IMG/VR virus record: IMGVR_UViG_3300029955_000126
Location: 1-25,924 of that record
Strand: one strand, 5' to 3'
DNA from: a virus
Length of the DNA: 25,924 nt
Part shown: positions 1 to 19,640 of the stretch, piece by piece
Numbering within the stretch: the first letter of the stretch is position 1
How the letters are laid out: every line of letters begins with the position of its first letter
Translations under genes and position numbers: made by a program
Notes under the pieces: model-generated
What the model saw: the letters and a program-made list of their open reading frames with translations, nothing else
The model's database searches: none
Told to the model about the DNA's origin: nothing

Positions 1-312
1 TATCGTTGCCGAGAAGATCAAGGACTCTGTGATTGCCGCCGAGCAGGCTGCCTGAACAGCAGCCGACGAAGCGACGAACCGCTCCGTCTCGTTGATCGAG
101 ACCGAGCTGGCTGCCTGGACCGCCGGTATCGTTGCCGAGAAGGCTTGGGCGTCTGTAATCGAGGCCGAGCTGGCTGCCTGGACCGCAGCCGACGAGGCGT
201 TGAACGTCTCCGTCTCGTTGATCGAGACCGAGGGGGCAGTCTGCACGGCGGCCAGAGCTGCTGTGAAGACCTGGATCTCGGTGACCAAGGCGGTATCCAC
301 AGCCTGGGTGAC
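1..312 (-). repeat. 21-residue (63-nt) protein-coding repeats, 126-nt double unit
   Basis: Near-identical 126-nt spacing is visible directly: the string TATCGTTGCCGAGAAG occurs at 1 and again at 127. Each 63-nt half encodes one unit. The SINET type (SINETETF, SINETERF) alternates with an AI/SITD type (SITDAQAF, AITESLIF). About five units are in the window and the array continues past the left edge. Confidence 0.85.
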
Positions 313-435: not shown

Positions 436-1995
436 CTACACCACCGCCAGCTTGGGATCAATCCAGACGGTCGCCGAGGGCTTGGCAAGGCAGACGCGAG
501 CCTTCATCGGCCCCTTCATCTGCGGCGTAAAGGTCACGGAAAGCGTCTGCAAGACCGGGGTTGAGATACCGGGGTCGGTCCAGGTGGCGGAGCTGGTCGG
601 AACCGCACTGCCCGCCGTGCCCTGAAGCGAGGCGAGGGTTGCAGCGGCGGAAGACTGCGTGGCCGAGATCGGGTAGCTGGCATTGGTCAGCCCCTCGACC
701 TCAAGCCAAATCTGGTCAGCAGTCAACGTGGCTGACGAGGCGATCTCCAGGCTGACTGTTTTGGAGACACCAACCACGTCGTTCCAGATCATAATGTCTT
801 GGCTATAGAGCGGAAACTTGAAGGACGAGTAGGTGGTGGTCACCATCTTCAGCGAGTAGGCGGTGGTGCCGTCGCTTGCCCCGGCGTTGTTGTAGTTGGC
901 AGCGTCGGTGACGACAGAGCCCTCGAACATGTATTTCTCAGAACGGTAATTCAGTGAACCCGTGTCACTGCGAGTCAAGTTGATCGTGCCGTACCGCGAC
1001 GTTGGAGTCCCACCTGTAATAGCGATTGCGCCCAACTCGCAGTCAGAAACATTAATCAAAACTGAAGAGGGGCTGGTCACGCTGCCCAGGTAAATAAGCT
1101 CCGAGACATTCTCGCCTAAACCCAACCCCTGAAGGTTTATTACCCCCCTAGAGTTGAGGTTCAATGCAATTACCTCAGTCGTATTGTATGTTGTACCGAG
1201 CGCGGAAACTGTATCCCTCCAGGTAAACGTGCCTCCCGCAAATTGAATGGCGCATGCGCATGCGCCGTTTGCAACAGTCGTGGTGTTTATGAATGTTATA
1301 TCGCTAGACTGGGTACTGGGTGCCCCCAAATACATGCACGGGGTGGCGGAGTTCTTTAGCTGAAATATGCAGCCTTCAAAGATAAGGTTGCTAGAACTAC
1401 CCGCATAGGAAATATAGAGCACTGACGAGGTTCCGCCGCCAGACGTGTTGAATGTTACTCCGTTGAAATACGTAAACCCGTAGATGTCAATGCAGCCAGC
1501 GAGGTTCTCCGTATTTGCGACAGATGCTCCCGCCAGTAGTGCCGTAGGCGGAGCAGTGCTACTGTTTACGCTCAGTACCTTAACCGGGTTTGCGGCGGTG
1601 CCAGACCCTGCTAGATTCGTAGCGGTGGCACTTGCTGTCTGACTATGGGCGCTGTCCAGATAGACCGTGTCACCAGCGGCAGCCCAAGACATAGCCGTCT
1701 CCAACCGACAATGCGGAGCACTCCACCCGTAGGTCGAGTTTCCCGTCACTTCGGTCCAGACCGGGCCGCCGCTCTCGGTGGTGGTCGATCCTTTGGTCAG
1801 CACCCAGGTCGGTTCGGACGAAAGCGAGGTTCCCGCCGTGGTGCAGCGAAAGCACCGTTCGCTGCCAACAGTCGGGGTGGCGTTCTGGCGCACGATCTGC
1901 CCGAGCGTGTAGGCGGTGGTCGCCGCCCACTTCGCCACAGCATAATATTTGCTGGACGTGTTGGTGATGTCACCAGAGCAATACCAGAATGCCAT
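436..1995 (-). CDS. Tail fibre/tailspike-like protein, beta-helix type
   Basis: A 519-residue protein, ATG at 1995 preceded by TAAGGATCAGCC (AAGGA ribosome binding site). Residues about 20-90 resemble a small carbohydrate-binding module: an aromatic cluster W-x-A-x-x-x-Y-x-x-G-x-x-V, then a second W-rich strand ending in PVWTEVTG. From about 95 to 350 the sequence has the short, repetitive, Asn/Thr/Gly-rich strands of a right-handed beta-helix (for example CIDIYGFTYFNGVTF, LIFEGCIFQL, DITFINTTTVANG). The C-terminal 170 residues look like a separate beta-sandwich. It is the first gene after a terminator and is followed by a second fibre gene, so a receptor-binding or polysaccharide-recognising role is inferred. 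The middle (about 940-1640) is clearly richer in A/T than the flanking genes, which fits exchange of a host-range module. No catalytic residues can be assigned. Confidence 0.7.
   Translation of the reverse strand: MAFWYCSGDITNTSSKYYAVAKWAATTAYTLGQIVRQNATPTVGSERCFRCTTAGTSLSSEPTWVLTKGSTTTESGGPVWTEVTGNSTYGWSAPHCRLETAMSWAAAGDTVYLDSAHSQTASATATNLAGSGTAANPVKVLSVNSSTAPPTALLAGASVANTENLAGCIDIYGFTYFNGVTFNTSGGGTSSVLYISYAGSSSNLIFEGCIFQLKNSATPCMYLGAPSTQSSDITFINTTTVANGACACAIQFAGGTFTWRDTVSALGTTYNTTEVIALNLNSRGVINLQGLGLGENVSELIYLGSVTSPSSVLINVSDCELGAIAITGGTPTSRYGTINLTRSDTGSLNYRSEKYMFEGSVVTDAANYNNAGASDGTTAYSLKMVTTTYSSFKFPLYSQDIMIWNDVVGVSKTVSLEIASSATLTADQIWLEVEGLTNASYPISATQSSAAATLASLQGTAGSAVPTSSATWTDPGISTPVLQTLSVTFTPQMKGPMKARVCLAKPSATVWIDPKLAVV
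1249..1266. repeat. Perfect 18-bp palindrome inside the fibre gene
   Basis: GGCGCATGCGCATGCGCC equals its own reverse complement. It encodes Gly-Ala-Cys-Ala-Cys-Ala in the fibre protein. No regulatory context is evident; it may be a by-product of the repeated Ala-Cys codons. Confidence 0.8.
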
Positions 1996-4510: not shown

Positions 4511-5014
4511 ATGCAAATCGGTAACAACGCGGTTCCCTTGCTCCGTGACTTCGTCAGCCAGCTCTATGACCTGAAGAAGGAAGAGGCCTCGGCCAAGGAA
4601 GACCGCAAGGATCTGGTCGAAGAAATGAAGGCCAAGGACCTGCCGGTCGCCGCCATGCTCGCCCTACTCAAGCGGGACGAGGAGAAGGTCGAGGGTCAGT
4701 TGGAGGCCCAGCGGAAAGCCGGGGCGATCCTCGGCATCACCGTCTATACCGAGGTCGATGAGGAGGAGCTGGCGGTCGATGAGGCCGAGGTGATCTTCGC
4801 CAAGGATCGGATCGAGGCCATTCGCGAGACCGACGCCGACTTGGAGCGGATCAAGAAGGAGGTCAAGGATAAGCTGGCCCAGGTCAAGAAGGACGGCTTC
4901 GTCCCCAAGATCGTGATGATGCTCGTGGACTTCCGGCTCGACCCTGACAAGCAGACTGCGTTCTCGACCAACAGCCTGCTGGTCGAGAAATACCTGGAGG
5001 CTGTCGGCGACTAG
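4511..5014 (+). CDS. Tandem GapR-like (DUF2312-like) DNA-associated protein, opposite strand
   Basis: A 167-residue, highly charged, mostly helical protein read against the flow of the late genes. Residues 9-76 (LLRDFVSQLYDLKKEEASA... DLVEEMKAKDLPVAAMLALLKRDE... GAILGI) follow the pattern of GapR/DUF2312: a first long helix with LxxFV, a KxDLxxxxKxxGF-like turn, a second helix, and a closing ALG-like motif. Residues about 105-166 (ADLERIKKEVKDKLAQVKKDGF... LDP... LVEKYLEAVG) repeat the same pattern, so the protein looks like an internal duplication. GapR of Caulobacter is a nucleoid protein that recognises overtwisted DNA; a chromatin or replication role here is inference. Its stop shares CTAG with the stop of the facing gpJ-like gene. 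An alternative is a generic coiled-coil protein. Confidence 0.6.
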   Translation: MQIGNNAVPLLRDFVSQLYDLKKEEASAKEDRKDLVEEMKAKDLPVAAMLALLKRDEEKVEGQLEAQRKAGAILGITVYTEVDEEELAVDEAEVIFAKDRIEAIRETDADLERIKKEVKDKLAQVKKDGFVPKIVMMLVDFRLDPDKQTAFSTNSLLVEKYLEAVGD

Positions 5015-8811: not shown

Positions 8812-9259
8812 GTTTGTTCGCCGGCAAGAGATCCATCAGGTCCATCTGCTTCATGTCAGCGGCCTTCGGCTTCACGTCCTTGTGGCGGAAGACACCCAGC
8901 GTCATGTTGCGCCAGATGCCGCCATAGGTGATCCGCTCGGAAAGCCGGTCGGTGTAGTGGTGAAGGATCGTACCGTCGCCGAGGTTGATTGCAGCATGGC
9001 AGGCCACGCGGGCGCCGACCGCGATCAGGAAGACGTCGCCAGGCTGCCACTTGCTGGGGTGGCAGTCGACACCTCGGAACCCCTCCTCGTAGGCGTTCGC
9101 CATGTAGAGGTCCATGCCTTGGTCCCACCATTTGCTGGGCCGGGCATATTCCGAGAGGGTGACCCCGAAATTGTCGGCGTAGAACCGCTGGAGCAAGGTG
9201 TAGCAGTCGTCCACACCATGCTTGAAGGGAATGCCGAGGAGGTGCTCGTATTTCATCAT
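8801..9259 (-). CDS. NlpC/P60 cysteine peptidase of the tail tip (gpK C-terminal-like)
   Basis: A 152-residue protein from the ATG at 9259, which overlaps the gpL-like stop as ATGA. The catalytic Cys19 lies in GVDDCYTLLQRFYADNFG, the standard 'G.DC..l....' helix; His88 is in RVACHAAINLGDG and a third polar residue is H100/H101 in ILHHYTDR. WQPGDVFLIAVG is the family's 'pGDvvlf' strand. Family members cleave gamma-D-glutamyl-diaminopimelate or similar peptidoglycan peptide bonds; in tail tips they open the wall locally during DNA injection. The C-terminus (RHKDVKPKAADMKQMDLMDLLP) is a charged extension. Confidence 0.9.
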   Translation of the reverse strand: MMKYEHLLGIPFKHGVDDCYTLLQRFYADNFGVTLSEYARPSKWWDQGMDLYMANAYEEGFRGVDCHPSKWQPGDVFLIAVGARVACHAAINLGDGTILHHYTDRLSERITYGGIWRNMTLGVFRHKDVKPKAADMKQMDLMDLLPANKRGR

Positions 9260-11220
9260 AGTGTGACACTCGGAAAATCGGGGGGCTGATAGCAGCGGGC
9301 CGGGATCGTGAACATCGGGCCGTCGATGTCTTCGCGGAGCTGCAGCTGGATCGAGGTCTTGTTCAGGCTGGTAACCCGCATCACTCGCCATGTCATGCGC
9401 TGGTAGATCGCATTGTCGCCGGCGAGGTTGGTCCCCAACACTCGGAACCGATAGACCGTCGCGGAGTCGAGCTTGCGCTGGGCGACGAAGGACGAGAAGA
9501 ACCCAGAGGGGTTCATGATCGCCAGGGTCGGGCGGCTGACCTCTTCGTCGGCCCCGTTCATGACACCAGAGATCTTGATGCCTAGGCTCTCCCACACCTT
9601 GCCCTGCCACGTCAGCGCGTTGCCCGCGTGGAGGTAGATGTTGGTGACGTTGTCGTTCAGCACGATCTGGAACAGGTCGACGAGGCTATCGCCGGTCAGT
9701 AGCTTGCTGTCCGCGACGTGCTCGGGGATGCTCCAGGGGCTCGGGGTCTGGCCACCGGCCGTGAAGTTGGCCCCTGCCGAGATCACGGCTGAGCCGGTGT
9801 TGCGAAAGATGTTGTTGGTGATCGCGCAATTCTGCTCGGCCGACTGGACGATGCCGAGGGATGCCCACCGCTCGGTGGTATTGGTCAGGTCCATCGACGC
9901 TGCGAGGTCGACCGCAGCAAGGTTGGCCGTGAAGAGCTGAACCCCGGTGATCGCCACTGTAGGGAAGCTGGCTTGGAAGGGGTCGAGGACGATACCGTTG
10001 CAGATGATCGCCTCGATGTTGAGGCTATCGAGGCCCACCTGGGTGAGGTACAGCGCACCGCCGAAGCGATAGCCCATCCAGAGGCCTGTCGACGAAGGAG
10101 CTTGAGTAGCCGCCCCGGTGATCGCATAGCTCGGCGTGCCGATGATGTCGACGGCATCGACATTGGGCTGGGTCAGCGCAAGCGAGGAGTAGAAGAGCGT
10201 CCCCTCGACCCCTGTCAGCAAGACAGTCGGGTCGGCCTGAACAGGGCTGGCAGAGAGCGGGAAGCTCTCCTGGCCTGCCAGGGCCGCCGCCGAGATGGGG
10301 TGGGTGCTGCCGGCCAGGACGGTGAACTGCTCGACCTCGTTGATCGATGTCGAGGCAGCCGCTTGGGTGGTTGCCCCTGCTGCCGTGAGCAGGCAGGTCC
10401 CGGTAACCAAGAGAGCCGAGATAGGCTGGATCGGGCCGTTGAGGATGACGAACTGCTCGATCTCGTTGATCGAAATCGAGGAGGCACCCTGGACAAGGCT
10501 GGCAGAAGCAGTGATGCCGTTCAGGACGACGATGGCCGCCGAGGGGTTTGCTTGGGTGGCAGCACCCGTGAGGGTGAACTGCTCGACCTCGTTGATCGAA
10601 AGGACGGAGGCAGCTTGGACAAGGCTGGCAGAAGCAGTGATGCCGTTCAGGACGACGATGGCCGCCGAGGGGTTTGCCTGGGTGGAGGCTCCAGCCATGA
10701 CGAACTGCTCGACCTCGTTGATCGAAATCGAGGAGGCACCCTGGACGAGCACGATGGAGGAGTTCGTCAGGTTGCGGATCGAGAGGTTGACGGTTGCAAC
10801 AGCTTGGGTCGCCGACATCGAGCTGACCGTGAAGCCTTCAACCTCGTTGATCGAGAGTGCCGCTGCGGCCTGGGCGAGGCTGAGGGAGGCCGAGGTGGAG
10901 CCACCGCCTGAGCTGATCGAGACCGAGGCGTTCGCCTGGACCGGGCCGACGTAGAGGACGATGAAGTTCTGGGCTTCGTTGATTGAGACCGACGAGGCTG
11001 CTTGAAGGCAGGCTGCTGAGAGCGTGATGAGGCCACCGACCGCAATCGAGACCGACGAGGCCGCTTGGCCTACACCGCCTGAGATAACCGTGAAGCTTTC
11101 GGTCTCATTGATCGAGACAGAGGAGGCAACCTGAACAGGGGCTGCAAAGAGGGTGAAGCCTGCAGCACCTGCAGACGCTGGAGCGCCAAGGGGGTAAACA
11201 CCAAGGACGCCGTTCAGCAT
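9256..11220 (-). CDS. gpL-like minor tail protein with a long N-terminal 21-residue repeat array
   Basis: A 654-residue protein, far longer than lambda gpL (232). Residues about 29-457 are some 20 tandem units of about 21 residues, alternating VQxASSxSINExExF-type units with TQANPSAAIVVLNGITASASL-type units. Residues about 490-654 match gpL: ALTWQGKVWESLGIKISG, EEVSRPTLAIMNPSGFFSSF, TVYRFRVL, then IQLQLREDIDGPMFTIPARCYQPPDFP. Lambda gpL continues with a cysteine cluster that binds an Fe-S centre; this protein stops after a single Cys, so that part is missing. The repeats look like a beta-solenoid fused to the tail tip ring. It precedes NlpC/P60 with an ATGA overlap, the lambda L-K order. Confidence 0.8.
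   Translation of the reverse strand: MLNGVLGVYPLGAPASAGAAGFTLFAAPVQVASSVSINETESFTVISGGVGQAASSVSIAVGGLITLSAACLQAASSVSINEAQNFIVLYVGPVQANASVSISSGGGSTSASLSLAQAAAALSINEVEGFTVSSMSATQAVATVNLSIRNLTNSSIVLVQGASSISINEVEQFVMAGASTQANPSAAIVVLNGITASASLVQAASVLSINEVEQFTLTGAATQANPSAAIVVLNGITASASLVQGASSISINEIEQFVILNGPIQPISALLVTGTCLLTAAGATTQAAASTSINEVEQFTVLAGSTHPISAAALAGQESFPLSASPVQADPTVLLTGVEGTLFYSSLALTQPNVDAVDIIGTPSYAITGAATQAPSSTGLWMGYRFGGALYLTQVGLDSLNIEAIICNGIVLDPFQASFPTVAITGVQLFTANLAAVDLAASMDLTNTTERWASLGIVQSAEQNCAITNNIFRNTGSAVISAGANFTAGGQTPSPWSIPEHVADSKLLTGDSLVDLFQIVLNDNVTNIYLHAGNALTWQGKVWESLGIKISGVMNGADEEVSRPTLAIMNPSGFFSSFVAQRKLDSATVYRFRVLGTNLAGDNAIYQRMTWRVMRVTSLNKTSIQLQLREDIDGPMFTIPARCYQPPDFPSVTL
9850..11136 (-). 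repeat. About 20 tandem 21-residue repeats in the gpL-like protein
   Basis: Seven units carry SINE followed by x-E/Q-x-F (SINETESF, SINEAQNF, SINEVEGF, SINEVEQF and so on), separated by a second unit type, so the double unit is 42 residues (126 nt). The DNA is nearly identical in the centre: 10490-10551 and 10616-10677 match over 62 nt at exactly 126-nt offset. Units towards the gpL domain are degenerate but keep the leading VQ/TQ. Confidence 0.85.
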
Positions 11221-11222
11221 CT

Positions 11223-12080
11223 TTAACCCGTGATTTCAACGGTATCGACGCGGGCCAACCAGTGAAGAACGCGGCCAGTGGGGGTTCCTGAGGGGGGTGT
11301 CACGGTGAAGCCTACGCAGTTGTAACTCCCTCCGTTAGAGGCGGTTACTCCAACACCCGTGAGATTCCAACCATTTTGTGCGACCTGACTTCCTAAGACT
11401 GGACTCGTAACTGCAGCAGTCGTCGAGACAGTGCAGGAAGCAATCCCCGCAACTGTAGTATCAAGGATTGCGACATTTGCCGCTGTGGTTTGATCTGTCA
11501 CTATAACAGTTATTTTGAGCGACATGCTCTGACCACTATTAACATTTATACTCATACCCCCGCCAGAGCCAAAGCTGAGCAAATGCGGGGTAGTGCCAGT
11601 TGTGGTGCCCATACCGACATAGGTCCCGATCTGCCGATCACCGATAGTGCTGAACTTCCCGCTGGCATAGGCCCATTGCCCTTGGGTGTTGCCTGCAGCG
11701 TTCAAGCCATGGATAAAACACTGGGAGGTGGTTCCGTTGTTACAGGAGTCACCAAACATATAGCTGCCGGGGGAACCTGTGTGGCCGTTCCCGATGATGA
11801 TCGAAGGCGTCGTCGGGAACGCGTACCCGCCACCATAGGCATTGATCCCGAGGTTGGTCCCCATCACCACCACAGGGGATGTTGCCCCATAGTAGTTGAT
11901 CCCCGACCCAATAATAATGTTACCCCCCACCCCGCCTGGCTGAGCAAGGAGGTTCGACGAGTTACCAACCACAATGTCGTTGGAATAGGCTGCGGCAGCA
12001 GATCGACCAACAGCCAGGGCGCCGTTGATACTGCTAATCAGGTTCGCTAGGCGCTGCCGAACATCGAGTCCGCTGAACAT
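11223..12080 (-). CDS. Beta-rich fibre-like virion protein
   Basis: A 285-residue protein starting 1 nt after the preceding gene. Residues 1-30 form an amphipathic helix (MFSGLDVRQRLANLISSINGALAVG). Residues about 35-130 contain short IVVG/IIIG/VVMG strands spaced by Asn/Gly turns (DIVVGNSSN, NIIIGSGIN, VVVMGTNLGIN, SIIIGNGHTG), the look of a trimeric beta-roll or beta-helix. The C-terminal half is Thr/Val/Ser-rich beta sandwich with SQVAQNGWNLTG and VLHWLARVDTVEITG. A tail fibre or surface decoration is inferred from composition and from its place among minor tail genes. Parts (about 11300-11560) are less GC-rich than neighbours, suggesting a variable module. Family not recognised. Confidence 0.6.
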   Translation of the reverse strand: MFSGLDVRQRLANLISSINGALAVGRSAAAAYSNDIVVGNSSNLLAQPGGVGGNIIIGSGINYYGATSPVVVMGTNLGINAYGGGYAFPTTPSIIIGNGHTGSPGSYMFGDSCNNGTTSQCFIHGLNAAGNTQGQWAYASGKFSTIGDRQIGTYVGMGTTTGTTPHLLSFGSGGGMSINVNSGQSMSLKITVIVTDQTTAANVAILDTTVAGIASCTVSTTAAVTSPVLGSQVAQNGWNLTGVGVTASNGGSYNCVGFTVTPPSGTPTGRVLHWLARVDTVEITG

Positions 12081-12081
12081 C

Positions 12082-12504
12082 TTAGAAGTCCCCAGCGAGG
12101 CCGTTGACGTTCAAGACCTTCCCCGAGGTGAGAGCTATGGGGAGCCCCACATAAAGAGACCAGCCGGCTCCGAGCCATAGCACCCGATTACCGAAGGGGT
12201 CCATCGCGGTGCTACCGAGGAGGTTGGCATCGTCGAGAACATCCTTGGCTGCTACCCCCGAGCTGTTCCCTGCTCCAGCGGCAACGCTCACCGTCGCTAC
12301 GATGAACTGGGTCGTCCCATTGAAGAGGATGATGTTCACGTCATGGGCCGACGTGTCGGTCGTGGAGAGGTTCAGCCGGTCGATGCGGCTGCCATTGGTG
12401 CCAGCGGAGTAGACGCTCTCGGCCGTCGTCCCCATCGCGTTGGTGAGCTGGAAGCCGACGTTCTTGACCGTGCCGGGGAAGATGGGTTGGGTGTTCGCTG
12501 CCAT
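12082..12504 (-). CDS. Small beta-rich virion protein, unknown family
   Basis: A 140-residue protein whose ATG overlaps the upstream stop as TAATG. Sequence is Thr/Ser/Ala/Gly-rich with alternating beta pattern: SRIDRLNLSTTDTSAHDVNIILFNGTTQFIVATVSVAAGAGNSSG, then DPFGNRVLWLGAGWSLYVGLPIALTSGKVLNVNGLAGDF. This pattern resembles small phage particle proteins that report as 'virion structural' in many alphaproteobacterial phages. There are no cysteines or membrane helices. It sits in a five-gene run of similar proteins behind a strong promoter, so a role at the tail surface or tip is likely. The exact function is unknown. Confidence 0.65.
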   Translation of the reverse strand: MAANTQPIFPGTVKNVGFQLTNAMGTTAESVYSAGTNGSRIDRLNLSTTDTSAHDVNIILFNGTTQFIVATVSVAAGAGNSSGVAAKDVLDDANLLGSTAMDPFGNRVLWLGAGWSLYVGLPIALTSGKVLNVNGLAGDF

Positions 12505-12848
12505 TACTGGGATCCACAGATCGAGATGAACTCAAGGGAATTGATCGTCGAGACCGCCGCCGCCGTGATCGATATCGTGCAGGTCGCCGTGCCCGAGAGA
12601 ATGAGAGCAGCGCCGCCGTTGGTGCTGCTTTCAACATTCCGGGTGAGGGTCGTGCCCGACGAGGAGTAGATCCCCCAGCCACACTCGTGACCCGGCGTGC
12701 CAGTGTCTTCGAGGGCATAGTAGACGAGTTCCTGGTCCACAACCCCGCCGAGGGCAGCGGTCAGATACCCACTGACAGCAGCACCCATCGTGATGGGATC
12801 AGTGCCGGTGGTGCTGACGCTGACCTTGATGAGGTTGTGGTAGCCCAT
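12504..12848 (-). CDS. Small virion protein, unknown family
   Basis: A 114-residue protein, 3 nt after the preceding stop. N-terminus NLIKVSVSTTGTDPITMGAAVSGYLTAALGGVVDQELVYYALEDTG, then WGIYSSSGTTLTRNVESSTNGGAALILSGTATCTISITA. This 'v..tT.TG...i.lg.av.gy.tf......g..v.Y.i.d....E.G.G.y....tL.R' pattern recurs in small virion proteins of many phages. It is probably a beta sandwich that decorates tail or fibre. Three Cys residues are present. The assignment as a structural protein is inferred from pattern and neighbours. Confidence 0.65.
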   Translation of the reverse strand: MGYHNLIKVSVSTTGTDPITMGAAVSGYLTAALGGVVDQELVYYALEDTGTPGHECGWGIYSSSGTTLTRNVESSTNGGAALILSGTATCTISITAAAVSTINSLEFISICGSQ

Positions 12849-12851
12849 GGA

Positions 12852-13253
12852 TTAGACGCCCGGCACGGTGAAGGTGAACGAGCTGACCGACAGGGTCGCG
12901 CCCGAGGACAGGCTGACCGAGTTCAGGTTCATGTCGCAGCCCGAGGTACCCACGGTGCCGTCGAACAGCGGGGTGACGCCGTCCGACTTCCAGCAGCGGA
13001 ACCAAGCGGCGGTGCCGGTGGTGCCGATGGTCACGTTGCTGATCGCGTTGGCGGTGATCACACCATTCGAGGCGGTGCCGAAGGCGGTGCCGTTCAGGGC
13101 CAGGGTCGCCAGCAGGGTGCCCGAGACCGCCGTCTCCGGGGTCGACGGCTGGCTGCCGCTGAAGATCTGGATGGAACCGCCGTTGGCGAGGGCAGCAAGA
13201 GCATTCGCCTCGGCGTTGGCCGCGACGTAGGAGATGTGAAGGTTCGAAGCCAT
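12852..13253 (-). CDS. Small virion protein with a common phage structural pattern
   Basis: A 133-residue protein from an ATG at 13253 (AGGA upstream). It reads SIQIFSGSQPSTPETAVSGTLLATLALNGTAFGTASNGVITANAI... GTAAWFRCWKSDGVTPLFDGTVGTSGCDMNLNSVSLSSGATLSVSSFTFTVP. The motif order (IY/FxGxxP, GTLLATL, GTAxWFR, DGTVGT, DxNLNS, SGATLSVxSFT) is one I recognise from small structural proteins found in many tailed phages of Proteobacteria. Its detailed role is undefined. All-beta, no membrane helix. It lies second in the run of five virion genes. Confidence 0.7.
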   Translation of the reverse strand: MASNLHISYVAANAEANALAALANGGSIQIFSGSQPSTPETAVSGTLLATLALNGTAFGTASNGVITANAISNVTIGTTGTAAWFRCWKSDGVTPLFDGTVGTSGCDMNLNSVSLSSGATLSVSSFTFTVPGV

Positions 13254-13265
13254 GGATGTTCGGTC

Positions 13266-13631
13266 CTAGTTCGAGAGGTTTACGACGAGCTGCCCAGCGA
13301 GCACGCTCAAGGGGAACCCAGCCGTAATGGTCTGGGGCACAGTCATGGGGGCAGTGAAAAGCAGGTTGCCCGAACTGTCGAACAACCCGACCCACCCAAC
13401 GAGGCCCCAAGTGCCCGTTGGTGTCGGAAAGGTGATGTCATCACTGTTGGAGGCTTCCGGCTCAGCGGTGACGACGAAATTAACCAGAAGGCGGACATAC
13501 GTATCCCCGCCGGCCACTTCGACACCATCTCCACCAGAGGGGTCCGTGATGAACAAGCCCAGCGTCACACCTGTGCCGACCAGCAACTGGTTCAGCAAAG
13601 TGCTTTGCAGGTAAGGCGTCATGTTCGCCAC
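13266..13631 (-). CDS. Small virion protein, first gene after an internal late promoter
   Basis: A 121-residue protein. The start is the GTG at 13631 because CTGGAGGAGTCCACCC places a perfect ribosome binding site 9 nt before it; the ATG three codons later is too far away. The pattern YLQSTLLNQLLVGTG... LFITDPSGGDGVEVAGGDTYVRLLVNF... NSDDITFPTPTGTWGLVGWVGLFDSSGNLLFTAPM is a common tailed-phage structural pattern ('yl...ll..ll........ALft..P...g.g.Ev.gg.Y.R..v.F.....i.fp.at..WG.v.hvgl.d...GnlLf.g.l'). It probably forms part of the tail surface or fibre base. It heads the minor virion run and directly follows promoter 13658-13687. Confidence 0.7.
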   Translation of the reverse strand: MANMTPYLQSTLLNQLLVGTGVTLGLFITDPSGGDGVEVAGGDTYVRLLVNFVVTAEPEASNSDDITFPTPTGTWGLVGWVGLFDSSGNLLFTAPMTVPQTITAGFPLSVLAGQLVVNLSN

Positions 13632-13657
13632 GGGTGGACTCCTCCAGTCACGCCGGC

Positions 13658-13687
13658 AGTATATCCGTGGTGATTGGAAGATGTCAA
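13658..13687 (-). promoter_or_regulatory. Sigma70-type promoter inside the tail operon
   Basis: On the minus strand TTGACA (13687-13682, perfect) is followed after 18 nt by TATACT (13663-13658, five of six). The start of transcription would fall near 13651, leaving a leader of about 20 nt that contains the GGAGGAG of the gene starting at 13631. A 12-bp palindrome lies 28 nt upstream of the -35. This would uncouple the minor tail and tip genes from the capsid-tape measure transcript. Confidence 0.7.
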
Positions 13688-13714
13688 CGAGTTGGACTTG
13701 GACTCTATTTAGGC

Positions 13715-13726
13715 TTTACTAGTAAA
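13715..13726. promoter_or_regulatory. 12-bp palindrome TTTACTAGTAAA upstream of the internal promoter
   Basis: A perfect palindrome in the gap between the gpM-like gene and the internal promoter. The core TACTAGTA also occurs at 8643-8650 and 20280-20287, always within TTTACTAGTA on one strand. The position suits a binding site for an activator or for the phage's own small regulator; this is inference. Confidence 0.45.
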
Positions 13727-13729
13727 CTT

Positions 13730-14119
13730 CTATGGAAGCTCGATAAGTTCGACTATGAAGTCTTCAACAAGTCCATTGCCAGAGGCCACGCCTTTCGGGA
13801 TCTGGAGCGGCTTCGAAAACCGCACTGTTACATTACCAATGGCGGGGTGCGGGTAGATGAACGTCCCGTAGAGCCGCTTTGACTGGTAGAATACTTCGAG
13901 AGCACCGACGTTGTTGATGTACTCACTGGTCGTCAGGTCGACAGACACTCCGTCCGACTGGACGAAGTATTTGAATCCTGTGAAGTACAGCTTGAAGATC
14001 CGCTGGTCCGGGCTGTCAGGGGGCGCGGCGAACTGGTAGGAGTTGCCGAACTGGGCGCGGACGGTCGAGTCCGGGTAGAGGGTCTCGACCTTGTGACGGT
14101 TCCAGAGAAAGGTGTCCAT
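13730..14119 (-). CDS. Minor tail protein gpM-like
   Basis: A 129-residue protein starting 1 nt after the tape measure stop. The N-terminus MDTFLWNRHKVETLYPDSTVRAQFGNSYQFAAPPDSPDQRIFKLYF follows the gpM pattern (lambda gpM begins KTFRWKVKPG and has VRKVRFGDGYSQRAP... LKTYSV). The next strands (LEVFYQSKRLYGTFIYPHPAIGNVTVRFSKPLQIPKG) are beta-rich and the end VEDFIVELIELP resembles the gpM C-terminal strand. In lambda, gpM follows the tape measure and helps build the tail tip between tape measure and gpL; the location agrees. Similarity is moderate. Confidence 0.7.
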   Translation of the reverse strand: MDTFLWNRHKVETLYPDSTVRAQFGNSYQFAAPPDSPDQRIFKLYFTGFKYFVQSDGVSVDLTTSEYINNVGALEVFYQSKRLYGTFIYPHPAIGNVTVRFSKPLQIPKGVASGNGLVEDFIVELIELP

Positions 14120-14120
14120 G

Positions 14121-17100
14121 CTACTGCCCCATCGCTACAGATTTGATCAATTGCTTGGTCTGGCCACCACGCAGGATGTCGTCGCCGATGACGGCCAGGA
14201 CGTCCTTGGGGCCTAGGCTGGGCTTGGCGTCGGGGGCCATGACGTAGACGTTCGAAGTGTCGGGAGCCCGCTTGTTGGAGTTGGCCGCCGAGGACACCGC
14301 CGAGGAGGCGTTCGAGTTGTAGCTGTTGCCCATGGCATTCAGCGCCGAGAGGTTGTTGGCACCGATCAGGTCGACGGCAGACTGGCGCATGATGAACTCA
14401 CCCGGCGCGGCATTGATGAGCGTGCTGTCGCGGGTCGAGGTTGGAGCATCACCGCCAAGGGCGTAGCTACGGCGGGGGACCTTGCCCCCTTGCCAGAAAG
14501 CATGACGCCCGGTGACGTGGCCACCTTGCCAAGCCATAGCTTCGCCGCCCATGGCAGCCATCCCGCCGGCCCCTGCCCCGGCCCCTGCCCCGGCCCCTGC
14601 CCCTGCCCCTGCCCCGGCTCCACCGAACAAGCTCCCCAGCGCGTTGCCGCCCATGTTCATCAGCTGCTTGGCCACCATGTTCGATGCGACCTGCTGCATC
14701 GATTGGAGGATCGAGACGGCCATGTTCTTGAAGGCCATCCCGACCTTGGTGGTCCCCGCCTCCATGGTCGTGATGAAGGAACTCATCGCCTGAGTGGTCG
14801 AGTTCATGACCTGGGGGATGCCATTGCGGAGGTCCTGAAGCATGGTCGTATTATTTGCTGATTGCCAGTCACTAAAGCCCGAAGAGACGGCCCCGCCAAC
14901 CGAGGTCGGAGGAGCCTCTTTTTCGAGCTGGACCTTGTCCTTGAGCAGGGTTAACTGTTTGGACTGTTCCCCAGTGATCTTCTCCTGAACGGTCGCTTCT
15001 TCCTTTACCGCGTCATTATAGGCGTTCTGAGCCGTCTCATGGTCCTTGCTACCTTCGGGAGCAGCTTCGAGAGTCCGCTTGCGATTAGCAACATCCTCCT
15101 GGGCCTTCGTCAGATCCGTCGAGAGGGCTTTGATATAGGTGTCGATGGAGTTCAAAAGGGCTTGGTTCTCGGTAATCAGCCTCTGACCTGCGGCGATCTT
15201 CTCCTCATCCGTCAGCTGCTCACCAGCAGCCTGCCGCTTGGCATTCTCAAGCTGAGCATCCACCGCCGTCTTGTTGATCTGGAAGTTGCGCAGATCGAAC
15301 TGGTTCGTCGCGGTGGTAACATCCGCGTCGATCCCTTTCTTTACTGAGGTCTGGCTGGGGCCGAGGTCGGCAGCCTTCTGAAGGTCAGCCTGCTCCTCTT
15401 CGAGCTTCGTCCTCTCCTCGTTGATTTTGTCGAGCTTGAACTTCAGCTCGGCCGGGGAGCCTTTGTGGGAGAGCACCTCATCCTTGGCGACGACGATCAA
15501 GTCGTTGATGTAATCGTCAACAGCCTTCTTGAGCTTCCCAAGGTTGCCCTGGATCTCTGTGGGTGTAGCTTCGGCATCCTTGGCCGCTCGCATGATGTTG
15601 TCGAGGGTGGCCTTGGCATCGCTAACAGCGGCTTGGTCGGTCTGCTGCTTGATCGACAGGGCGGCAGCGTCGATAGCGTCGTTCCGGGTCTCAGCATCCC
15701 GCTGGTAGCCATCAATCTGCTGCTTGGCCGCAGCCTGAGCTGCCATGATCGCGGTGTCCCGGTTGGCCGCTGCGCCACGGGTGTCCGCGCCGGGGTTGGC
15801 GAGGATATCCTTCTGGTAGTTGTCGTTGGCCTGCTTCAAGGCAATCGCCAAGTTATCATTGGCTTTGGCCGTCGCATCCTTGAGGAAGGCATCGACCACG
15901 GCCTTGGTCTTGGCCTTCGACATCTGGCCAATGTCGTCCGCCGCCGTCAGGCTGTTGGCTGTCGAAGCCTTGGTGTCAATGAGCTTGTCAAAGGTCAGTG
16001 CGTCGGCCGTCGCCGTCAGGGTCTTCGCTACCAGCTCCTGCTGGGCAGTCTTCAGCTTCGCCAGAGCCTCCGCCGACCCCGCGTATTCGATCGGTTTGTC
16101 GGTGACATCTTCCTGGGACTTAATGAACGCCTCAAGGTTCTTGATGGTGTCACCGGCCTTCGAATTGAACTGATCGAGGCGGTCCTGGGCCAGCTTACGA
16201 AGGGCATCAGGGTCAGTCTCGTGGATATCTCCAGGCTTGTTAGCAGCGGCTTGCTCGGTCTTGGCCTCAACCAAGAGAGCATCAGCGCGGGCAACGATAG
16301 GCTGACCGGCGGCTTGCTCGTCGGCAGTACGGAGGAGGGCCTTCTGCTGCGCGGGGATGTTGGCCAGAGCGGTGAGCTTCCCCATCGCGGCGTTCAGCTC
16401 GGTCGCCGTTGCCCGAAGAGCATCCTTATCTTCAGGGGTGGTGGCATCATTGGCCCGCTTGGAGAAGTCGGCATAAAGCTTCCCGAGGATCTCGGAGTTA
16501 GCCGCGTTGCTTTCTGGTGTGCTGTCCTTCGCCGGCTGAGCCTTGAGGATGGAATAGGCTGCATCGTAGATCAGTTGCTTGTTCTTGTCGTCGTCGGACA
16601 GCTTGTTGGCATAGCCGCCGACCGTCGTGCTGGAGGCTGCGAAAGCCGCGTTGGCTGCCTTTTGATCCAGCTCGGCTTTGGACCCCAGTAGATCCGCCTG
16701 CTCGCGGGTCTTGATGACGATCTCCCCGGCGGTAGAGCCCTTCAGCTTCTCCAGCGCAGAGATAAGATCGTCCGTCTTGGTGACAGCTCCAGAGATATGG
16801 AGCCCCAGGGAGCCGAACTGCTCATTGAGGTTGGCGACCTCTTTGACAGGGTCCTTCAAGTTCTCACCCTCGGCGGCCAGCTTTAGGATCGCCGCATCGA
16901 TAGCGCCAACAGACTTTTCTGCGCTCTCAATCCCTGACTTCAGCTCGGAGATTTTACCCTTCACCGCATCGATCTGATCATCGAGAGAGGGGAACTTCCC
17001 CGAGAGGGCAGAGATCGCCATGGCCAAGGCGGCGACGGCTGTAACCACCACGGTGATGACGCTCGGGCTCTTGACCAAACCGAGGAGCATCCCTCCGAAG

Positions 17101-19640
17101 CCAACCGAGGCCTCCTTGGCGGCCACTCCGACCCCTTCGACAACCGTCTCAACCTCTTTCGCAGCGGTAAGGGTCTTCAGCGCCGTGGCGGCCTCAGTGA
17201 CTGCTGTCCCGGCGCCCATCAGCTCTAAGGTAAAAGCCGCCAGCTTCATCGACCCGAACGCCGCGCCGGCATCGACTACCGCGCTGGTGAGAGCCGGGAA
17301 CTTATTGGCTGCCGACAGGATACCGCTGGTGAGATTGGCGAGGCCCTTGAGAACCTCACCTAATGGCATCGCCGCATTCTGAAGCGTGGTCGCCCAGGTG
17401 TTGCCCAGGCGCTCGAAGGACCCAGCGAGGGTATCGAGGTTACGCTTGGCAGCGTCGGCAGCGGCCCCCTGCTGACCCATGGTGGCGATGAACTCGTCGG
17501 CGTGCTCGATGTTCTTTCCGAGGGCGTTGTAGAGGGCCGCGCCCTCCGCCCCCATGATCTTCATCGCCTGAGCCGAGGTGAGCCCGGCCTCGTGCATGTT
17601 CTTGAAAGCGCCGATCAGGCCGTTGGCCTTCAGGTCGACGGCGTCGGAGTTGAGCCCGACCTGAGCCAGCTCCTTGGTGAAGGCCTCGGTCGGATTGGCC
17701 ATCGCCAGCATGGCTTGGCGCAGCCCCGTGCCGAAGCGGTCCTGCATGCGGACGCCAGCGTCGGCGGCCAGCGCCATCGTGCCGATCAGCTCCTTGAGGC
17801 TGACATTGGCTTCGGCCCCGACCTCAGCAGTCAGGCTGAGCCCGGACTTCAGTGCCTCGGAAGTCAGCCGGCTCTTGGCCATGGTGCCGGTTGCGAGGTC
17901 CGCGATTTGCCCGGTGCTGCTGCTGGGCATATCGTAAGCGCCCACCACGCCGGTCAGCATGGTCGCGGCTTCCTGAGGCTTCATACGGGTGGCCGACGAG
18001 AAGTCGGTGATCCCCTTCAAACTGTCCTGGACCTGGGTCGCGGTGAAACCGAACTTGCCGAGGACGATGGTCGCCTCGACAATATCCTTGGCGGACTGAT
18101 TGCTGGACGCAGCCACACCGTCGATGGTGGTCCGCAGGTCCTTCATCTGGCTGTTAGACGCCTGGGTCAGCGCCTGCAATTCGCCGAACGATTTGTCCAA
18201 CTCGACGACGCTGCGAACGGTCTCGGTAATACCGCCGAACATTGAGCCGAAGATCATATAGTCGGCCATATTCGAAGAGTGGCGTCCGAAGCGGTCTTGG
18301 ACGCTTTCCTGCTGGGGCGGGGGGCGATTGGCCTTGGCAGCGGCCTTATTGGCTTCGGCTAGCTTCTCAACCTGGAGGGTCATATCCTTGACCTTAGCGG
18401 CCTGAAGATCCCACTCCAGGGAATTCTCCGCCAGAACATCAAGGTTCTTCTTCTCGGTAGCCAGGAGGGTCTGAGCCTCAGCAATCGGAGACGTAGCGGA
18501 AGCAGCACGGGCCGCGCCACGGTTATTGTTAAGGTCGATCTGCTGTTGAGGCCGAGCCGCGTTGGCTGCCGCTTTCTCAGCAGCTTCCTGATCGGCCGCC
18601 ACCATCTTCGCGTTGGCGTCGAGTTCCTTGAAGTAGCTCTTCGCCGAGGCAAGTCGTTCCTGCTCGTACTCGTTCCAAGCAGCAGCGGACTCTTTGTTGA
18701 CCTGAGCTTCCGCGTTGGCTGCCGCTTTTTGATCGGCCACCGCCATCGCCGCGTTGGCGTCGAGTTCCTTGAAGTAGCTCTTCGCCGAGGCAAGTCGTTC
18801 CTGCTCGTACTCGTTCCAAGCAGCAGCGGACTCTTTGTTGACCTGAGCTTCCTCTTTTTGAGCCTCCGTCACAGCCTTGATCTGGGTCTCGACGGCAAAG
18901 AGGTCCTCGGTATATGCCTTGATCCTTAGCGGGTCAGCGGCACCGATGGCCTCCTGCTGGTCCAAGCCGGCGGCGATCTTCATCTTCCCGAGCTGGTTGA
19001 GGTCGGTCGAGTTTGGGTCGACACCGTTGCGTCGATAACGCAACACATCGGGGTCAACCTCATTGAGCTTCCGTTCGAACTGCTTGCTCTGCCCCTTCCC
19101 AAGACCTTCCAACTTGGCTGCGTTGGTCGCCTCCCGGACAACGTCCAGCGACTTCAGCAGCGTGTTCCGCAGGCCATCGACGAACAGCTTCATCGTCTGG
19201 GTAAGCATCGCCTCGGTAGACGAGGCAATCGTCTTGCTGATGGCCTGAGCATTCTGACGGCCCAGGGACTGCTGATAGGCTGCGTTGTTCGCACGGGCGT
19301 CGGAGCGGTCCTGGTTCTGAAGTGAGTTGCGGCCTGAGTTGGCCGAGCCCATTTGCCGAGCAGCTACGCTGGCGGCAGTCCCCCGGTCATCCTCCTTGAC
19401 CCGATGAAGCTCCGCCAGGGTCTTCTGAGCTTGAGCCAGTTGGTTGTTGAGAGCCTCAACACCCTGAGTGAGGGCCGCCACCTTCTCCGTGGGAGGTCCG
19501 AAGGCTGCGCCCAAGGCCTCTGTGGCGGCGTCGGCGGAAACAGCAACCTTCCCTAGGCCCTGCTCAAGGGTGTCAAGCTCCTCAAGGCCGGTGACAACAG
19601 CATCTAGTTCAATCTGACCTGCACTGTTCTCGTCAGCCAT
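14121..19640 (-). CDS. Tail tape measure protein
   Basis: An 1839-residue protein, the longest gene here, with GAGAGGTTAGCAAC before the ATG. Residues 1-450 are helical, Ala/Gln/Glu/Lys-rich coiled coil, including a tandem duplicate of about 47-51 residues (residues about 263-360). Residues about 455-800 contain the TP901-type tape measure core ([31 protein letters not shown]..., [25 protein letters not shown]). A membrane-like helix [17 protein letters not shown] lies near 865. A long coiled coil follows, then an alternating Gly-Ala tract near 1675-1690 and a C-terminus with [15 protein letters not shown], common in tape measures. The protein sets tail length and may pass through the host membrane during injection; about 1.5 Angstrom per residue would give a tail near 270 nm (inference). 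Confidence 0.93.
14568..14624 (-). repeat. Low-complexity Gly-Ala codon tract in the tape measure gene
   Basis: Repeated CCCCTGCCCCGG on the plus strand encodes (Gly-Ala) about nine times on the minus strand. Such a tract can slip in replication and is probably a flexible linker before the C-terminal domain. Confidence 0.8.
18559..18852 (-). repeat. Tandem duplication in the tape measure gene
   Basis: Two units, 18559-18711 (153 nt) and 18712-18852 (141 nt), differ mainly by a 12-nt indel. The inner 102 nt (18610-18711 and 18751-18852) are identical, so the duplication is recent. It encodes [20 protein letters not shown]... [11 protein letters not shown] twice and preserves the frame. Confidence 0.9.

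What the first reader, a model, noticed from the sequence alone, without database searches (positions are those of the whole stretch)
9850..11136. A 21-residue 'SINE' repeat family, about 20 copies, fused to the front of a gpL-like tail tip protein
Residues about 29-457 of this protein are tandem 21-residue units with leading VQ/TQ and, in every second unit, SINExExF. I know of no named repeat with this signature. The alternation of two unit types (42-residue period) and the residue pattern suggest a beta-solenoid attached to the tail tip ring. Lambda gpL has nothing like it.
Basis: partly seen in the sequence, partly recalled or inferred. Interest (0 to 1): 0.75.

Follow-up and report, generated by a model that had tools for sequence, protein, structure and literature searches.

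The report
Repeat arm fused to tail-tip protein
A phage tail-tip ring protein that in all examined relatives is a small single domain here carries a long front extension of about twenty 21-residue repeats, probably an arm for gripping the host; similar 21-residue repeats recur in host-binding proteins of unrelated phages beside one small structural gene, a pattern for which no name was found.

Summary
Residues 29-457 of the 654-aa minus-strand ORF 9256-11220 are 20 units of 21-23 residues with a 42-residue super-period far above shuffles. SINE alternates strictly only in units 1-14; units 15-20 are degenerate. A second, truncated SINE array lies at the contig end (1-309). Residues ~495-654 are the HDI ring domain of a lambda gpL-like protein, without lambda's iron-sulphur domain. 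In close relatives gpL is about 150-170 aa with no extension. The window has about 4 kb inserted between gpM and gpL: five small genes plus the array, in frame with gpL and with no good internal start. The signature matches no Pfam, PHROG, NCBIfam or PDB family. AlphaFold gave strands but low confidence (pLDDT 38-70), so the solenoid is unproven. The array is not unique in kind: profile comparison links it to 21-residue Q-repeats in other phages (E 2e-4), and arrays of period 21/42 lie near phrog_3758 in 12 of 22 loci against 0 of 48 controls, fused to lectin, beta-helix, propeller or glycine-rich domains. One phrog_3758 relative is probably the baseplate 'garland' protein of phage 7-7-1. Best reading: a beta-rich adhesin shaft anchored on the tail-tip ring, analogous to 'evolved Dit' proteins. 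Function is inferred.

The parts
9850..11136 (-). Tandem 21-23-residue repeat array, 20 units (residues 29-457); SINE units alternate with non-SINE units in units 1-14
11137..11220 (-). Short N-terminal leader of the repeat-gpL protein (residues 1-28), starts 2 bases after the stop of the preceding gene
9739..9849 (-). Linker between repeats and gpL domain (residues 458-494); no ATG, and the one in-frame GTG has no ribosome-binding site
   Evidence: and sequence inspection; pLDDT < 50
9256..9738 (-). gpL-like HDI tail-tip ring domain (residues ~495-654); no Fe-S domain
   Evidence: phrog_18 2e-11, TIGR01600 6e-6, 34-46% identity to JWF-type gpLs, pLDDT ~90 over 511-633, Foldseek 8iyk_L 3e-7
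1..309 (-). Second SINE repeat array, truncated by the contig end, inside ORF 1-432
12852..13253 (-). phrog_3758 'virion structural protein'; a related protein (7-7-1 gp103, 9rkv_A) is probably the baseplate garland protein
   Evidence: PHROG 1.2e-30; L061 homologue hits 9rkv_A 1.2e-6 and 44nx_B 3e-11; identities
13266..13631 (-). Small protein of the Gp80 family (podophage GP4 fibre I protein); weak similarity to a carbohydrate-binding module
   Evidence: PF23140 6.6e-19; 8jou_a 3e-4, 5fu4_A 1e-3
12504..12848 (-). Inserted small protein, local match to a phage tail-fibre-domain protein
   Evidence: MW574966, 1e-4
12082..12504 (-). Inserted small protein, unknown
   Evidence: no significant relative
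11223..12080 (-). Inserted 285-aa glycine-rich protein, unknown
   Evidence: no significant relative
13730..14119 (-). gpM-like tail-tip protein (phrog_34212); in relatives its gene abuts gpL
   Evidence: phrog_34212 4e-33; synteny; the name gpM rests on gene order
13658..13687 (-). Promoter-like TTGACA-18-TATACT (11 of 12) at the upstream edge of the inserted gene block
   Evidence: weak evidence, 1.1 such sites expected by chance at the scan's looser threshold

Best explanation
The array is a beta-rich adhesin shaft (arm) that the phage has wired to its tail-tip ring. [quoted passage not shown] The arms would either touch host surface polymer with many weak contacts or carry small beta-proteins from the same inserted gene block (phrog_3758 garland-like protein, Gp80/CBM-like protein, glycine-rich protein). 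The array lengthens and shortens by duplication of 21/42-residue units. Shown: the repeats, the fusion, its absence in relatives, the inserted gene block, the gpL domain, and the recurrence of such repeats near phrog_3758 and beside adhesin domains. Inferred: beta-arm structure, three copies, host binding and docking.
For: gpL domain by PHROG, NCBIfam, identity and Foldseek. Lambda gpL HDI forms the last ring with gpJ and stacks on gpM (PMC10721106). Close relatives have gpM and gpL adjacent and no extension. Alternating hydrophobics at positions 7, 9, 15, 17 and two or three predicted strands per unit. 21/42-period arrays near phrog_3758 in 12 of 22 loci vs 0 of 48 gpL controls, fused to LamG, beta-helix, propeller and glycine-rich domains. 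In L091/L093 the repeats and C-terminus are nearly constant while the N-terminal domain differs, as expected of a shaft. 7-7-1 gp109, with such repeats, is annotated as a virion structural protein. Two adjacent 42-residue doubles are 87% identical in DNA, so copy number has changed recently.
Against: No confident structure (mean pLDDT 54.7 for the protein, 38 for the isolated array). The window array has no recognisable receptor-binding domain at its free end, so shaft-only or docking roles are guesses. No functional data exist for any of these arrays. Profile similarity to most other 21-period arrays is not significant, so the wider class may be convergent. The contig is metagenomic: host and virion unknown.
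Confidence: 0.5

Rival explanations
1. The repeats form a docking scaffold rather than an arm that touches the host: like binds like, so the gpL-fused array captures the second SINE protein (1-432) or the garland-like protein and hangs separately made fibres on the tip.
For: The same alternating SINE units occur in two proteins of one phage and nowhere else found. phrog_3758 relatives surround tail fibres in 7-7-1 (PMC12796354).
Against: No evidence of interaction; the second array could be an independent fibre built from the same duplicated DNA.
Confidence: 0.2
2. The array is a flexible, largely disordered spacer of no defined fold, with repeats kept only by DNA duplication.
For: Low AlphaFold confidence, below 50 over nearly all of residues 281-510. 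Ala/Ser-rich composition. Near-identical copies point to recent duplication.
Against: Conserved alternating hydrophobic positions (V/I 7, I 9, F 15, V 17) and strict 21-residue spacing while other positions diverge to 33-43% amino-acid identity; predicted strands in most units of the first half.
Confidence: 0.2
3. The fusion is an artefact: a sequencing or assembly frameshift, or a missed start, joins a separate repeat protein to an ordinary gpL.
For: gpL is a separate ~150-170-aa gene in all close relatives, and only one copy of this sequence is available.
Against: The whole junction is open in one frame, the linker has no ATG, and the one in-frame GTG has no ribosome-binding site.
Confidence: 0.1

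Closest known systems
Lambda gpL / JWF-, Seuss- and Lumi-type gpL (PF05100, phrog_18)
   Same: C-terminal 160 residues: HDI tail-tip ring domain, in the order TMP-M-L-K-I-J
   Different: Lambda has a C-terminal Fe-S domain and no N-terminal array; relatives are a bare HDI domain of about 150-170 aa
Evolved Dit proteins of siphophages (e.g. skunaviruses, PMC10688798)
   Same: A ring protein of the tail tip gains extra sequence that is thought to add host-surface binding
   Different: evoDits carry carbohydrate-binding domains inserted in Dit; here it is a tandem repeat array at the N-terminus of the gpL hub-ring protein
21-residue Q-repeat proteins next to phrog_3758 (L061, L090/L091/L093, L094)
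   Same: 21-residue units with Q near the start and alternating hydrophobics; profile match SINE-L061 E 2e-4, SINE-L094 E 0.01; reversed controls score 6-8
   Different: Not fused to gpL; no SINE motif; fused to LamG, beta-helix or FN3 domains, or free
Other 21-period arrays in phage tail or fibre proteins (mycobacteriophages Charlie, Papyrus and Fowlmouth; Vibrio 367.14; Atu_ph07; 7-7-1/OLIVR4)
   Same: Period 21, beta-like pattern, beside phrog_3758, in minor tail or virion proteins
   Different: No significant profile similarity to SINE; relation may be only geometric
7-7-1 garland protein (9rkv_A)
   Same: Related to the phrog_3758 gene in the inserted block; surrounds baseplate fibres
   Different: A small separate protein in a contractile-tailed phage; nothing repeat-like

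Membership tests
Phage minor tail protein L (gpL) | HDI ring domain, sequence and fold | tested here: met
   phrog_18 2e-11; TIGR01600 6e-6, below its curated cut-off; PF05100 19 bits, below its cut-off of 25; Foldseek 8iyk_L 3e-7
Phage minor tail protein L (gpL) | Gene order TMP-M-L-K-I-J | tested here: met
   but with a ~4 kb insertion between M and L, absent
Phage minor tail protein L (gpL) | C-terminal Fe-S domain with four cysteines, as in lambda | tested here: not met
   One Cys in residues 495-654; JWF-type gpLs also end before that domain, so this is a subgroup trait
Beta-solenoid repeat | Regular coils in a confident model or structure | tested here: inconclusive
   pLDDT 38-70, two or three strands per unit; monomer only
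Any named repeat family | Match in Pfam, NCBIfam, PHROGs or PDB | tested here: not met
   no significant match to residues 29-457
21-residue phrog_3758-linked repeats | Period 21/42 and phrog_3758 in the neighbourhood | tested here: met
   phrog_3758 at 12852-13253, 1.6 kb upstream of the repeat-gpL gene; survey
21-residue phrog_3758-linked repeats | Common descent by profile comparison | tested here: inconclusive
   Supported for L061 (E 2e-4), weak for L094 (E 0.01), not shown for the rest
Evolved Dit | Carbohydrate-binding domain in the extension that aids adsorption | not testable with these tools
   No domain recognised in the array; binding needs experiment

The most novel reading that the evidence does not exclude
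A general, unnamed 21-residue beta-repeat is a swappable shaft module of phage adhesins. It works with a garland-like partner (phrog_3758), has spread among siphophages, podophages and myophages of unrelated hosts, and in this phage has been wired directly to the hub-ring protein gpL.
Probability: 0.4. Interest if true: 0.68.

Novelty: new variant of a known kind. Interest (0 to 1): 0.5.

Why it matters
Tail-tip ring proteins with added host-binding parts (evolved Dits) are known in phages of Gram-positive bacteria. A long tandem-repeat arm on a gpL hub-ring protein is a different solution and gives a sequence handle on an uncharacterised class of phage adhesins. The link between 21-residue repeats and phrog_3758, one relative of which is probably a structurally placed garland protein, makes a testable prediction about which virion proteins partner, including in cultured phages (7-7-1, Charlie, Papyrus, Fowlmouth, Atu_ph07).

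Tried and rejected
Direct searches with the full protein or SINE patterns in viral contigs, genome contigs, phages and plasmids found the gpL part only. One pattern scan was wasted on a miscounted motif. A two-unit DNA pattern gave 24 loci: L061 and L082 were followed up; the rest were judged unrelated (other frames, coiled coils or other repeats). Single-protein tblastn of L061, L090 and L094 repeats against cultured phages: none. Low-complexity filtering may hide relatives. The PDB hits of the repeats (4r6f leucine-rich repeat E 0.04, 8bby S-layer E 0.88) were rejected as chance. UL20, DUF3626 and similar Pfam hits are below cut-off. The second AlphaFold model was not used for Foldseek because its confidence was 38. 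An internal start for gpL was considered and rejected on sequence. GC content does not mark the insert as foreign. No defence-system match.

Full report
What is there. ORF 9256-11220 on the minus strand encodes 654 residues. Residues 29-457 divide into 20 units of 21-23 residues, each starting with a residue followed by Q (18 of 20). Autocorrelation at lag 42 is 0.39, against a maximum of -0.05 over all lags in 300 shuffles. SINE is present in 7 units and alternates strictly through unit 14; units 15-20 are degenerate. Hydrophobic residues fall at positions 7, 9, 15 and 17 of the SINE units, the pattern of two short beta strands. Two adjacent 42-residue doubles are 87% identical in DNA while others are 51-66%, so units have been duplicated at different times. 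A second array of the same type is cut by the contig end at 1-309.

What it is attached to. Residues ~495-654 match minor tail protein L (phrog_18 2e-11; TIGR01600 6e-6), are 34-46% identical to gpL of Achromobacter phages JWF and 2-1, Xylophilus Lumi, Caulobacter Seuss and related contigs, fold confidently (pLDDT about 90 for residues 511-633), and match lambda gpL 8iyk_L by Foldseek (E 3e-7). [quoted passage not shown] The window protein and its close relatives lack that second domain. In JWF, 2-1, Lumi, Seuss, a Methylobacterium plasmid-phage and L010, gpM is directly followed by gpL, and none of the ten closest IMG/VR gpLs has an extension. The window instead has about 4 kb between gpM and the gpL domain: five small genes and the array. 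A search of twelve related records found no array.

Is it known? Pfam, PHROGs, NCBIfam and the PDB give no significant match to the repeats, and the literature searches made found no paper naming it (open-access papers only). Searches by SINE patterns found the signature nowhere else in viral or genome contigs. A looser two-unit pattern led to L061, a podophage-like contig with a 167-aa protein of 21-residue Q-units, directly after a phrog_3758 gene. phrog_3758 is also in the window's inserted block (12852-13253).

Survey. Of 22 loci retrieved by phrog_3758 homology alone, 12 have an ORF with best period 21 or 42 within 5 kb, against 0 of 48 gpL loci treated the same way. Some loci are related (L091/L093; L096/L106), so the count overstates independence; L105 also has a 21-period ORF that a spurious frame outranked, and L099 has period 23. 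Many gpL control loci are also redundant. The arrays adjoin LamG (L090), beta-helix-like (L091, L093, L094), FN3/LamG (L094), propeller-like (Atu_ph07, whose Pfam hits are WD40-type; 7-7-1 and OLIVR4 by inspection) and glycine-rich parts (Charlie, VSN-002). Profile comparison with reversed controls links SINE to L061 (E 2e-4) and weakly to L094 (E 0.01), and L061 to L090 and L094, but not SINE to the others. So a Q-type cluster is supported; the wider class shares period and neighbourhood only.

phrog_3758. The L061 member matches two solved chains: 44nx_B, which is the phiR18/KPP25-type protein, and 9rkv_A. 9rkv_A has the same length as 7-7-1 gp103 and matches it over its full length (E 9e-89), and the 7-7-1 paper assigns 9RKV to the tail fibres and describes garland proteins in contact with them. 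That gp103 is the garland protein is my inference from gene order, length and that entry.

Structure and mechanism. AlphaFold2 gives mean pLDDT 54.7 for the whole protein and 38 for the isolated array, with two or three short strands per unit. This does not confirm a solenoid; trimers could not be modelled. The best reading is a beta-rich arm anchored by gpL at the tail tip, three copies by analogy with lambda, used for host contact or for docking small adhesins. The closest functional analogy is the evolved Dit (PMC10688798). Confidence 0.5.

Noticed in passing
L106 6412-10365 (Agrobacterium phage 7-7-1 gp107-gp109): Three consecutive proteins annotated as virion structural proteins; gp109 has 21-residue repeats after a propeller-like part and no PDB relative, gp108 has a ~20-residue WxYPxY repeat. 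The 7-7-1 structure paper says the capsid-fibre protein is unidentified, so these are candidates worth testing.
   Followed up: partly
window 9739-13729: A block of five small genes plus the array is inserted between gpM and gpL; in relatives these genes abut or overlap. A promoter-like site (11 of 12) lies at its upstream edge.
   Followed up: partly
window 18589-18852: 141-bp tandem duplication (96% identical) inside the tape-measure gene, i.e. a 47-residue unit that could change tail length.
   Followed up: no
window 14566-14618: Short 6/12-bp tandem repeat in the tape-measure gene encoding a GAGAGA run.
   Followed up: no
window 4511-5014: A 167-aa, charged ORF on the opposite (+) strand between gpJ and the downstream genes; no defence-family match.
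   Followed up: no
window 436-1995: 519-aa protein next to the second SINE array with a weak head-decoration match (phrog_20658, 8e-5), a domain also present in the tail-fibre protein after the repeat gene in L061.
   Followed up: partly
L082 5641-7617: 658-aa protein made mostly of NLTHITAADTIPDTTVAGTG-type 21-residue units, in a contig with two phrog_3758 genes; not similar to SINE by profile.
   Followed up: partly
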